Shown here: in pieces, positions 21,631 to 24,794 of the stretch
Numbering within the stretch: the stretch's first letter is position 1
How the letters are laid out: each line of letters begins with the position of its first letter
Source: a virus
IMG/VR virus record: IMGVR_UViG_3300047451_000072
Location: 1 to 24,870 of that record
Direction: 5' to 3' (one strand)
DNA: 24,870 nucleotides
The notes under the pieces: generated by a model
What the model was told of the DNA's origin: nothing
Database searches by the model: none
Seen by the model: the letters and a program-made list of their open reading frames with translations, nothing else
Program-made: the position numbers and the translations under genes

Positions 21631-22314
21631 TTATAGGAACATTGGTTCGAAGAAGGCAACCTTGGAGCTGTATACAACGCCACACCCTACAATTGGTTTG
21701 GCAGCATACACTCGCCCGTAGTTCATAGAGGGGTGATCGTGTTCTACGCCACAACCTACCTGCATACCAAACACACAATCGTGTTGGTTTGCGTGATAGA
21801 CTAGACCAGCTTGGGCGTGCAGGTGCCCTTGGACTAAGGAATTAAACTCAGCCACAGCATTCTTATATGCCGCCTGCTGTCCGCCCTTCCCCTTGTCTCC
21901 GTGACGGTAGATGACATTATCAATTACTAGGTCGTGATAGCGAGGATGTATTGTCCACCCGTCCAACTGCCATAGAGATTTGAAGTCTTTCATTAGATGT
22001 TCTGGTATGCCAATGGTCTTGGCCTTACGAGAGGGAAGGTCGCTATGGTTACCCTTGAGGTAGTCTACCTTGGGAAAGGCTTTGTGGAGCTTCCTAACCT
22101 GCTTAAATGCTTCGGCAAACTCATCCTCTGCGCTTGGCATTGACGGATCTTTCTCGTGGTAGGATATTGAGTTCCAGTCTACCAAGTCTCCGATGTGGAC
22201 AACCCGGTTGCAATTGTGTTTCTTCTCAATCTTCTTGAGGAACTTGATGTAGTCTGGGTGCATGGCAGGGCAGTGCGTGTCACCGATGATTAGAACTTTA
22301 TTTTTCTGTGGCAT
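21631..22314 (-). CDS. metallophosphoesterase
   Basis: All motifs of a calcineurin-like metallophosphoesterase are visible in the 227 residues: GDTHC (11-15), GDLVDW (42-47), GNHSD (88-92), RHGDK (137-141) and GHLHA (163-167). The metal-binding Asp, His and Asn residues are therefore present, so the enzyme should hydrolyse a phosphomono- or diester with a two-metal centre. The GNHSD version has Ser before Asp rather than the common GNHD/GNHE. Substrate cannot be read: cyclic nucleotides, nucleic acid ends or phosphoproteins are all possible. It is last in the leftward module before the shared terminator. It has no Shine-Dalgarno (ACACAATATG) and 128 bases of gap upstream. Confidence 0.9.
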   Translation of the reverse strand: MPQKNKVLIIGDTHCPAMHPDYIKFLKKIEKKHNCNRVVHIGDLVDWNSISYHEKDPSMPSAEDEFAEAFKQVRKLHKAFPKVDYLKGNHSDLPSRKAKTIGIPEHLMKDFKSLWQLDGWTIHPRYHDLVIDNVIYRHGDKGKGGQQAAYKNAVAEFNSLVQGHLHAQAGLVYHANQHDCVFGMQVGCGVEHDHPSMNYGRVYAAKPIVGCGVVYSSKVAFFEPMFL

Positions 22315-22927: not shown

Positions 22928-23197
22928 TTATTGATTTTTATTTGTTAGATATATCCAGTCAGACATTTGGCTTTGGATGTCGCTCTTTATAGATTTCATT
23001 GTTGCGTATTGAACACCAGCAGTAAAATCCTTCAAAACATCTTCTAGAGTATCGCCCTTCCACACATACTGCGGGAATGTATCAAACTCCGTAATGTCTG
23101 GATGCTTAAACTGCGCCTCATGTTCCTCAATTTGTTCGTAACCGAGCAACTTGAGGATTTTTTTATCCCGGGATGTTAATTTCTTTTTAGTCTTCAT
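22928..23197 (-). CDS. 89-residue hypothetical protein
   Basis: It overlaps the preceding gene by one base (TAATG), so it is coupled. The protein starts with a basic helix (MKTKKKLTSRDKKILKLLGY) and continues with acidic, helical parts ending KSDIQSQMSDWIYLTNKNQ. No motif recognised. Its tightly joined neighbours suggest a shared function in an early or host-interaction module. Confidence 0.7.
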   Translation of the reverse strand: MKTKKKLTSRDKKILKLLGYEQIEEHEAQFKHPDITEFDTFPQYVWKGDTLEDVLKDFTAGVQYATMKSIKSDIQSQMSDWIYLTNKNQ

Positions 23198-23427
23198 TAT
23201 TTATTGGACGTTGGTTTTACTGACCGAGGAGGCATCACCACCCATTGATCTTTAGCTTGCATGACGAACTGCTCTAGGTGTGCTAGGTCTTCGTCATACA
23301 GGGGCTTATCTGAAACTACTGTTTTAAATCCAGCGAATCGCTTGAAGGCATCCGCGTGAAAAATAACAGAGAGAAGGCAGCGTTCTCCTTGCTCGTTGTC
23401 CATGTCTAGTGTGCAGGTGTATTTCAT
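23197..23427 (-). CDS. 76-residue hypothetical protein
   Basis: It starts two bases after the stop of the 111-residue repeat protein within the sequence ACATAACTATGAAA and ends in a TAATG overlap with the next gene. The N-terminal half (MKYTCTLDMDNEQGERCLLS) is beta-like, then an alpha-rich part. No family recognised. Its start region is almost the same as that after the other repeat paralogue, although the proteins that follow differ. Confidence 0.7.
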   Translation of the reverse strand: MKYTCTLDMDNEQGERCLLSVIFHADAFKRFAGFKTVVSDKPLYDEDLAHLEQFVMQAKDQWVVMPPRSVKPTSNK

Positions 23428-23429
23428 AG

Positions 23430-23765
23430 TTATGTTTTATTGGCCGAGCGTGGCGTTCCTCCCGTGTAGCCTTGACTGTCCGCAAAGTAAGTCTTGTTAC
23501 CTTTAGTATCATACTCACACCTATACCAGAAGTCATCGCTTTCCTCGTAGTAAGTCACGTTACCGTCGGCATCATGATCCCACCTATACCAGAAGTCATT
23601 ACTGTCCTTGTGGTAAGTCACGTTACCGTCGGCATCATGATCCCACCTATACCATGAGCCGTCTCTGCCCTCGTGGTAAGTCATGCAACCATTAGCATCT
23701 TTAAACTCGATAGGAAAGGTAAATGAAATCCCGAGTTCTGTTAGTGTTTCGCTTAGTTTTTTCAT
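23430..23765 (-). CDS. 111-residue tandem-repeat protein, copy A
   Basis: The N-terminal 19 residues form a helix (MKKLSETLTELGISFTFPI), followed by four 21-residue units at about 20-103 of the form (W/E)-x-x-D-x-x-Gly-Asn-x-Thr-Tyr-x5-Asp-x-Phe-Trp-Tyr-Arg. One unit reads WDHDADGNVTYHKDSNDFWY. The pattern has the Tyr-Asp and Gly-Asn spacing of YD/RHS-type repeats, though shorter. The unit likely folds into short beta hairpins. A paralogue lies at 24459-24794 and shares 30 of the first 32 residues. The function is unknown; a ligand or envelope-binding protein is a guess. Start in ACATAACTATGAAAAAAC, no Shine-Dalgarno. Confidence 0.8.
   Translation of the reverse strand: MKKLSETLTELGISFTFPIEFKDANGCMTYHEGRDGSWYRWDHDADGNVTYHKDSNDFWYRWDHDADGNVTYYEESDDFWYRCEYDTKGNKTYFADSQGYTGGTPRSANKT
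23457..23708 (-). repeat. four tandem 63-base coding repeats, copy A
   Basis: The DNA for the four 21-residue units of the 111-residue protein has a 63-base period. Units two and three are nearly identical at the DNA level, which points to recent expansion or slippage between units. Confidence 0.75.
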
Positions 23766-23767
23766 AG

Positions 23768-23878
23768 TTATGTGTTAATAGCTAACCAAGCGTATGTCAC
23801 AACGCCTTTGGCGCGGCTGTCTTCAGTGTTAGTCGGAGAAATGTGGAACTTCATGCCAGTGAGTAAAGGTTTCTTCAT
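23768..23878 (-). CDS. 36-residue small protein overlapping the 62-residue gene
   Basis: On the - strand ATG 23878 opens a 36-residue frame (MKKPLLTGMKFHISPTNTED, ending VVTYAWLAINT) with stop TAA at 23770-23768. A second ATG at 23854 would give 28 residues. Its stop is joined to the next gene by the same TAACTATG junction as the two other repeat-protein starts, and it fills an otherwise empty 63-base gap. It overlaps the end of the 62-residue gene in another frame, so it is uncertain. Confidence 0.35.
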   Translation of the reverse strand: MKKPLLTGMKFHISPTNTEDSRAKGVVTYAWLAINT

Positions 23879-24017
23879 CGTCCGTCCACAATTGAAACAG
23901 AACAGTCTTATATCCGCCCTTCTCCTTATCCCTCACCCCGTCCCACATAAGTCGGCAGGTTGGTTTCATTTCTACTCCACAATCATTCTTGTATGATGTT
24001 ATCTTTCTCGTATTCAT
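23829..24017 (-). CDS. 62-residue hypothetical protein
   Basis: A protein of mixed charge (MNTRKITSYKNDCGVEMKPT, then GGYKTVLFQLWTDDEETFTH), with a beta-like second half and no membrane part. The start context is AAAACTTATG without Shine-Dalgarno, behind a 76-base gap in which a small hairpin (CGGC, five bases, GCCG) can form. No family recognised. Confidence 0.6.
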   Translation of the reverse strand: MNTRKITSYKNDCGVEMKPTCRLMWDGVRDKEKGGYKTVLFQLWTDDEETFTHWHEVPHFSD

Positions 24018-24093
24018 AAGTTTTCGATGTTAAAATTAAAGGACACAACCAGTCAGAGCTAGCAACGGCTAATCGCCGCGCTCACACTCGACG

Positions 24094-24456
24094 TTATAGT
24101 TTGAGGAAATCAAAAAGCCTTTTCAACAACCCATCCTTCGGTTTAGGTGGATCGTATGGCGGTATTTCTATTTCGTGGTTGTAAAATGTCCTGTAGAACG
24201 CCCGAAGGTTTTCCATGTTACACATGTAGGCATCCTCAGCGGAAGTGCCACCATGAAATACAGAGATCTTTACCTGATGCTTCATGTGTTGCAGTGTCCT
24301 CCACGCCACCTGAGCATCCCACTCACTATAACCATTCGAAACGGTCAATGCCTTATCTCCCGACATTGTTTTATCATTTGGTGCTTTGCCGAAACCACTT
24401 CCAGAAGTTCCTGTAGGTGCATTCACCGTCCCTGCGATTTCATTCAGTTTTTTCAT
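24094..24456 (-). CDS. 120-residue hypothetical protein
   Basis: It begins MKKLNEIAGTVNAPTG, near in form to the MKKLSET start of the repeat proteins, and continues as a mixed protein with WDAQVAWRTLQHMKHQVKIS in the middle and a basic C-terminus, KPKDGLLKRLFDFLKL. The last segment can be a short amphipathic helix. It starts two bases after the stop of repeat copy B (24459-24794). No family recognised. Confidence 0.7.
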   Translation of the reverse strand: MKKLNEIAGTVNAPTGTSGSGFGKAPNDKTMSGDKALTVSNGYSEWDAQVAWRTLQHMKHQVKISVFHGGTSAEDAYMCNMENLRAFYRTFYNHEIEIPPYDPPKPKDGLLKRLFDFLKL

Positions 24457-24458
24457 AG

Positions 24459-24794
24459 TTATGTTTTATTGGTTGAACGGGAAGTTCCTTCCGTGTAGCC
24501 ATTACTGTCCTCGTAGTAAGTCTCGTTACCATTATCATCATACTCATACCTTTCCCAGAAGTCATCGCTGGTCTCGTGGTAAGTCTCGTTACCGTTAGTA
24601 TCATACTCATGCCTATACCAGAAGTCATCGCTGTTCTCGTGGTAAGTCACGTAACCATTGGAATCACGCTCATACCTATACCATGAGCCGTCACTGTCCT
24701 CGTGGTAAGTCATGCAACCATTAGCATCTTTAATCTCAATAGGGAATGTAAATTCAATCCCTAGTTCTGTCAGTGTTTCGCTTAGTTTTTTCAT
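24459..24794 (-). CDS. 111-residue tandem-repeat protein, copy B
   Basis: This is a paralogue of the protein at 23430-23765 with the same length, the same 19-residue helical N-terminus (differing at residues 14 and 21 in the first 32), and four 21-residue units at about 20-103, such as EYDTNGNETYHETSDDFWER. The same Asp/Gly-Asn/Thr-Tyr/Phe-Trp pattern is kept, while other positions differ, so both copies may be functional. The stop is followed by CT and the ATG of the 120-residue gene. Its own start overlaps the TGA of a gene cut off at the right edge (ATGA). Confidence 0.8.
   Translation of the reverse strand: MKKLSETLTELGIEFTFPIEIKDANGCMTYHEDSDGSWYRYERDSNGYVTYHENSDDFWYRHEYDTNGNETYHETSDDFWERYEYDDNGNETYYEDSNGYTEGTSRSTNKT
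24486..24737 (-). repeat. four tandem 63-base coding repeats, copy B
   Basis: Four units with a 63-base period code for residues 20-103 of the paralogue, more diverged from each other than the middle units of copy A. Confidence 0.75.

What the first reader, a model, noticed from the sequence alone, without database searches (positions are those of the whole stretch)
23430..24794. Two paralogous 21-residue-repeat proteins in one leftward operon
Copies A (23430-23765) and B (24459-24794) share start, length and a four-unit repeat with Asp, Gly-Asn, Thr-Tyr and Phe-Trp-Tyr-Arg marks, and differ in about half of the repeat positions. The middle units of A are almost identical in DNA, so units can expand. 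Phages seldom keep two diverged copies unless they have distinct partners. They could be adhesins, anti-host or immunity-like proteins.
Basis: partly seen in the sequence, partly recalled or inferred. Interest (0 to 1): 0.6.

Follow-up and report, generated by a model that had tools for sequence, protein, structure and literature searches.

The report
Phage mini YD-repeat binding proteins
The two look-alike genes belong to a large, apparently unnamed family of small phage proteins built from the same hairpin repeat as big Rhs toxin shells; phages keep duplicating the genes, changing the number of repeats and changing certain repeat positions unusually fast, which suggests binders of changing targets inside the infected cell.

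Summary
ORFs A (23430-23765) and B (24459-24794) are real, leftward, 111 aa each and 71% identical, with four 21-residue units each. They differ at 34% of repeat positions, not half. They are in-paralogues (99/96 support); dN/dS is 0.09 in the start cap and about 0.9 in the repeats.

They belong to a large phage family that I did not find named anywhere. In 166 fetched loci I count 261 distinct proteins with 1-12 units and 1-14 gene copies per stretch of at most 10 kb. Otherwise identical relatives differ by exactly one 63-bp unit. AlphaFold2 (pLDDT 94) gives a short helix followed by a ladder of beta-hairpins. Fold and profile searches converge on Rhs/YD repeats, but the phage proteins are too short to close an Rhs shell.

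The three most variable unit positions (8, 19, 21) have pooled dN/dS about 1.4-1.5, against at most 0.9 in a neutral simulation, so diversifying selection is likely. Neighbouring genes, where known, are mostly replication and nucleotide genes, with no constant partner.

Best reading: early, intracellular binding scaffolds with changing targets. The fold is well supported; the function is inferred (0.4).

The parts
24459..24794 (-). Copy B: YD-repeat protein, 111 aa, four units
   Evidence: AlphaFold2 pLDDT 93.9
24735..24794 (-). B: N-terminal cap (aa 1-20), with predicted helix 4-10
24672..24734 (-). B unit 1 IKDANGCMTYHEDSDGSWYRY
24609..24671 (-). B unit 2 ERDSNGYVTYHENSDDFWYRH
24546..24608 (-). 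B unit 3 EYDTNGNETYHETSDDFWERY
24483..24545 (-). B unit 4 (degenerate end) EYDDNGNETYYEDSNGYTEGT
23430..23765 (-). Copy A: YD-repeat protein, 111 aa, four units
   Evidence: 71% identical to B
23706..23765 (-). A: N-terminal cap (aa 1-20)
23643..23705 (-). A unit 1 FKDANGCMTYHEGRDGSWYRW
23580..23642 (-). A unit 2 DHDADGNVTYHKDSNDFWYRW, 90% DNA identity to unit 3
23517..23579 (-). A unit 3 DHDADGNVTYYEESDDFWYRC
23454..23516 (-). A unit 4 (degenerate end) EYDTKGNKTYFADSQGYTGGT
23747..23777 (-). Shared gene border (ACATAACTATGAAA) at the start of A; similar borders at 23409-23439 (end of A) and 24438-24468 (end of B)
23197..23427 (-). 76-aa ORF directly after A; a 92% identical copy follows a YD gene in another phage (L089)
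24094..24456 (-). 120-aa ORF between B and A; its first bases resemble the start of A and B
21631..22314 (-). Metallophosphoesterase at the end of the leftward run
   Evidence: PHROG 221, 4.5e-48; Metallophos 1.5e-8

Best explanation
A and B are members of a phage family of small, standalone YD (Rhs-type) repeat proteins. Shown: each 21-residue unit (E-Y-D-x-N-G-N-x-T-Y-x-E-x-S-x-G-Y-W-x-K-x) is predicted as a beta-hairpin; the units stack into a short sheet behind an N-terminal helical cap; unit number, gene number and C-terminal tail vary greatly between phages. Inferred: the proteins are made early in infection, stay in the cell and act as binding scaffolds. Conserved residues (W18, K20, E1, Y10, E12) hold the ladder together, while fast-changing positions (8, 19, 21, also 11, 13, 15) contact targets. 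Targets are probably host proteins, host defences or rival mobile elements, so adding or losing units and duplicating genes gives a phage a changing set of binders. Two copies with one cap and different repeats would then serve different targets or different target variants.
For: Fold: AlphaFold2 pLDDT 93.9 and 91.6; Foldseek to RhsA 1.8e-5 and other Rhs shells; profile matches to Tse5 7.1e-5 and RhsA 2.8e-4, RHS_core in 29 of 55 members. Variation: 1-12 units, up to 14 genes per locus, up to 27 matches in one record, pure one-unit indels. Selection: dN/dS 1.38-1.47 at positions 8+19+21 with bootstrap intervals above 1, and 0.07-0.11 at 10 and 12; neutral simulation 0.48-0.92. Setting: small-gene clusters with replication and nucleotide genes, strand opposite the virion genes in the window. 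Almost absent from 286 related bacterial genomes. One relative is fused to cREC_REC, 1.6e-20.
Against: No target, expression time or location in the cell is known. The selection test uses non-independent pairs, and the positions were picked from the same data. Which face the variable positions lie on is inferred from strand limits only. Variation in unit number could be neutral slippage, and some may be assembly error in metagenomes.
Confidence: 0.4

Rival explanations
1. The proteins have a modest accessory role in infection, and their tandem repeats and shared gene borders simply make them prone to copying; the variation is mostly neutral turnover under weak constraint.
For: 63-bp units and shared borders offer sites for unequal crossing-over; overall unit dN/dS is 0.54-0.65; P8625 keeps only one copy.
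Against: dN/dS above 1 at particular unit positions beside near-invariant ones; the cap is conserved while the repeats diverge; the family persists in very different phages.
Confidence: 0.3
2. They are virion or tail-associated adhesins that vary to follow changing host surfaces.
For: Repeat proteins with variable positions are common in adhesins (general knowledge); structural similarity to the single-layer sheet of OspA.
Against: Genes lie apart from the virion genes and on the other strand in the window; known neighbours of relatives are mostly replication and nucleotide genes.
Confidence: 0.12
3. They are immunity or antitoxin proteins, like the hairpin-repeat MORN_2/YwqK family, that neutralise toxins of hosts or rival phages.
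For: Hairpin repeats of similar length; weak structural matches to viral MORN proteins (E about 0.02 and worse).
Against: No MORN_2 match for A or B at E up to 10; the signature matches RHS/YD repeats instead; no constant partner gene.
Confidence: 0.1

Closest known systems
Verrucomicrobia phage P8625 CDS42 (KP792622, AKA60293.1)
   Same: Same cap and units, 62% identity to B over 100 residues; top viral structure match (A0A0E3M0X5, 51% identity; taken to be this protein from its length and identity)
   Different: Single copy, five units and a GKVIEVDGKKYKL tail that A and B lack
Rhs/YD-repeat shells (RhsA, Tse5, Tc toxin components, teneurins; PF05593, TIGR01643)
   Same: YD-x-x-G unit of about 21 residues forming stacked beta-hairpins; profile and fold matches
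   Different: About 10 strands instead of the 76 of RhsA (PMC8765631), no closed cocoon, no toxin domain; scores below Pfam cut-offs where shown
OspA-type single-layer beta-sheet
   Same: Open flat hairpin ladder; Foldseek E about 7e-4
   Different: No sequence relation shown; Z about 5 only
MORN_2 / YwqK-type hairpin repeats
   Same: Short hairpin repeats of about 22 residues
   Different: No profile match for A or B; signature is YD-like

Membership tests
RHS/YD repeat (as a repeat kind) | Unit of about 21 residues with a YD-x-x-G signature | tested here: met
   Unit consensus EYDxNGN..., D3 91% and G6 89% conserved; aligned in the same register with Tse5 and RhsA units
RHS/YD repeat (as a repeat kind) | Stacked beta-hairpin fold like Rhs cores | tested here: met
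   Foldseek best matches are Rhs cores, TM to query up to 0.68; VIA-align Z 10.7 but rmsd 7-9 A
RHS/YD repeat (as a repeat kind) | Score above the curated Pfam/NCBIfam cut-off | tested here: not met
   A and B have no RHS hit; PF05593 matched 8 of 55 members, best 8.7e-4; where a bit score was shown it was 17 against 22
Rhs toxin / Tc / teneurin shell protein | Closed cocoon of dozens of strands | tested here: not met
   A and B have about 10 strands; RhsA has 76 (PMC8765631)
Rhs toxin / Tc / teneurin shell protein | C-terminal PxxxxDPxGL motif and toxin domain | tested here: not met
   Neither is present in the 111-aa sequences of A and B; motif as described in PMC8765631
MORN_2 / YwqK antitoxin | Match to PF07661 | tested here: not met
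   No match for A or B at E up to 10; HMMER filters may drop weak ones
MORN_2 / YwqK antitoxin | Neutralises a toxin | not testable with these tools
   No constant partner gene among 482 neighbours speaks against a fixed pair only
Phage tail adhesin | Encoded with virion genes | tested here: not met
   Opposite strand from the virion genes in the window; known neighbours of relatives mostly replication and nucleotide genes
Phage tail adhesin | Present in virions | not testable with these tools
   Needs mass spectrometry of particles
Family of P8625 CDS42 | Same cap and units over the body of the protein | tested here: met
   62% identity over 100 residues, E 2e-30; alignment A1

The most novel reading that the evidence does not exclude
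Phages carry an evolvable repertoire of repeat binders: YD-hairpin proteins with a fixed framework and selected variable positions, diversified by gaining or losing 63-bp units, by tandem gene duplication at shared borders and by tail swapping, each tuned to a different host defence or rival element. This would be a phage counterpart of other repeat-based binding repertoires.
Probability: 0.3. Interest if true: 0.8.

Novelty: new variant of a known kind. Interest (0 to 1): 0.52.

Why it matters
In solved structures this fold appears in giant toxin shells and teneurins. Here it stands alone in small phage proteins, in arrays of up to 14 genes, with signs of diversifying selection. If they bind defence or host proteins, they would be a large unexplored source of phage counter-defence genes, and P8625 with its cultured marine host makes the question testable.

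Tried and rejected
Calcium-binding EF-hand reading of the D-x-N-G-N motif: E 0.18 at best; the motif fits the hairpin turn of a YD unit. DNA-mimic reading: median pI 4.97 and net charge -0.04 per residue, too mild. Toxin-partner reading: no constant neighbour. The MORN_2 search of genomes gave no control hit and says nothing. A plasmid search at E 1e-8 with a long relative found nothing. Weak matches to Listeria, faecal, Streptococcus and Pseudomonas phage records were not followed: identities 23-44% and weak E-values. Paper searches found no description of the family; that is not proof that none exists. C-terminal tails were looked for in non-repeat ORFs of the same loci and occur there only in a shifted and a truncated family copy.

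Full report
What is in the window. The window is a whole virus record of 24,870 bases. Terminase, a 704-aa ORF in the usual portal position, the major head protein and other virion genes run rightward. From 24,794 down to 21,631 a run of small genes reads leftward and ends in a metallophosphoesterase (PHROG 221, 4.5e-48). B is the first and A the fourth of these. The record stops 76 bp upstream of B. Between B and A lie ORFs of 120 and 62 aa without convincing family matches.

Check of the observation. A and B are 111 aa each, align without gaps at 83.8% DNA and 71% protein identity, and contain four 21-residue units each. In a tree of 34 four-unit proteins they are sisters (99/96), and A has the longer branch, 0.48 against 0.19. 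The caps are under purifying selection (dN 0.044, dS 0.511), the repeats as a whole hardly (dN 0.192, dS 0.211), and the variable repeat positions have dN 0.363 against dS 0.298. Units 2 and 3 of A are 90% identical in DNA, closer to each other than to B, so a unit was probably copied or converted within A. The stated 'half of the repeat positions' is really 34%.

Family. One named phage has a clear relative: P8625, lytic on a marine verrucomicrobial strain (PMC4642752), CDS42, a single-copy hypothetical protein with five units. IMG/VR yields 125 and 105 confirmed stretches with two alignments. A unit matrix applied to 166 loci gives 261 distinct proteins (237 complete) with 1-12 units, mostly 3 or 4; 84 loci have two or more copies within at most 10 kb (P8625, 33 kb, and the window are held whole), and L096 has 14 (some loci overlap on one contig). 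A search of whole records gives 27, 17 and 7 matches in three of them, where a long protein can match more than once. Two gene pairs are 100% identical except for exactly one 63-bp unit, and further pairs at 88-94% differ by one to three units. Some of this could be repeat collapse in metagenome assembly. Of 286 genomes of the class of the one Opitutae bin that holds a member, that bin alone has a true member, on a 14-kb contig that may be phage DNA. Twenty other genomes match only weakly (20-34 bits), inside long open frames of 314 to 9,597 aa, nearly all over 700, as expected of giant YD-repeat proteins.

Close relatives of this phage. L048 shares the metallophosphoesterase (74%) and a weakly similar 947-aa virion protein (24%), and has four YD ORFs with 3, 3, 4 and 6 units, the last being two YD genes joined in frame. 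L094 shares the same two genes and has one YD ORF of 3 units with a cysteine-rich tail. L089 shows none of the virion genes in the piece held, yet has a YD gene directly followed by a 92% identical copy of the window's 23197-23427 ORF, so this stretch seems to move between phages.

Fold. AlphaFold2 on B with 55 rows: pLDDT 93.9, helix 4-10, then hairpins. A relative with the GKVIEVDGKKYKL tail: 91.6, with the tail as one more small hairpin at lower confidence. Foldseek's top PDB matches are Rhs proteins (RhsA 1.8e-5), then teneurins, Tc components and OspA. VIA-align gives Z 10.7 to Rhs cores but with rmsd of 7-9 A, so this is agreement of kind, not of detail. Independent sequence profiles agree: Tse5 7.1e-5 and RhsA 2.8e-4, RHS_core in 29 of 55 members. 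RhsA has 76 strands in its shell (PMC8765631), so these proteins cannot form such a cocoon alone.

Which positions vary. Over the distinct sequences of 897 well-scoring units the entropy peaks at positions 19 (3.84 bits), 21 (3.32) and 8 (3.10), while Y10 and E12 hardly change. For nearest unit pairs in two identity classes, dN/dS at 8+19+21 is 1.47 (1.26-1.69) and 1.38 (1.14-1.75); at 19 alone 1.87 (1.58-2.26) and 1.42 (0.99-1.91); at 10 and 12 it is 0.07-0.11. A neutral simulation with the same estimator gives 0.48-0.92 at these positions, depending on transition bias, so the excess is not an artefact of the counting. Limits: pairs are not independent, and the positions were chosen from the same data.

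How copies may arise. A sequence around ACATAACTATGAAA occurs at the start of A, the end of A and the end of B. In relatives the stop of one gene often overlaps the start of the next in CTATGA. CTATGA marks 84 of 259 family starts against 107 of 1511 other ORFs, and 48 of 259 family ends against 33 of 1511; adjacent family genes share a border, so these counts are not independent. Short shared borders plus 63-bp repeats offer sites for unequal crossing-over; this is a proposal. A and B lack the GKVVEVDGIKYKL tail found in at least 56 relatives.

Function. The 482 near neighbours fall into 346 clusters, the commonest in only 14 loci, so there is no constant partner. Where a neighbour is known it is mostly an integrase, polymerase, nucleotide-metabolism or RNA-ligase gene, with a few cell-wall hydrolases. 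One relative is fused to cREC_REC, the cyclic-phosphate processing receiver domain (1.6e-20), and one to DUF551 (below cut-off); single cases may be accidents. I therefore favour an early intracellular binding scaffold with changing targets (0.4) over neutral turnover of an accessory protein (0.3), adhesin (0.12) and immunity protein (0.1). The fold and family statements are much safer (about 0.9) than the function.

Noticed in passing
L160:55-795: A YD-repeat protein fused to a cREC_REC (cyclic-phosphate processing receiver) domain, E 1.6e-20.
   Followed up: partly
record G004 (IMGVR_UViG_3300035034_000461), e.g. G004:C1:36046-36399 and 48101-48409: 27 YD matches in one 73-kb record; two are interrupted by an in-frame TAG, either broken copies or a recoded stop.
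   Followed up: no
L106:3794-5452, L140:3734-4732, L142:2201-4705: YD units appended in tandem genes to a different N-terminal domain that starts MKxLIRKILREE.
   Followed up: no
L099:3464-5542 and L102:3281-4846: Long phage proteins with 12 and 9 YD units and large other parts.
   Followed up: partly
window 23197-23427 and L089:3662-3859: A 76-aa ORF of unknown function is 92% identical over 63 residues in a phage piece that otherwise shares only the YD gene, in both cases right after a YD gene.
   Followed up: partly
family gene starts in all loci: Only 19 of 205 family genes have a Shine-Dalgarno-like motif upstream; A-rich leaders and ACT-ATG starts are common.
   Followed up: no
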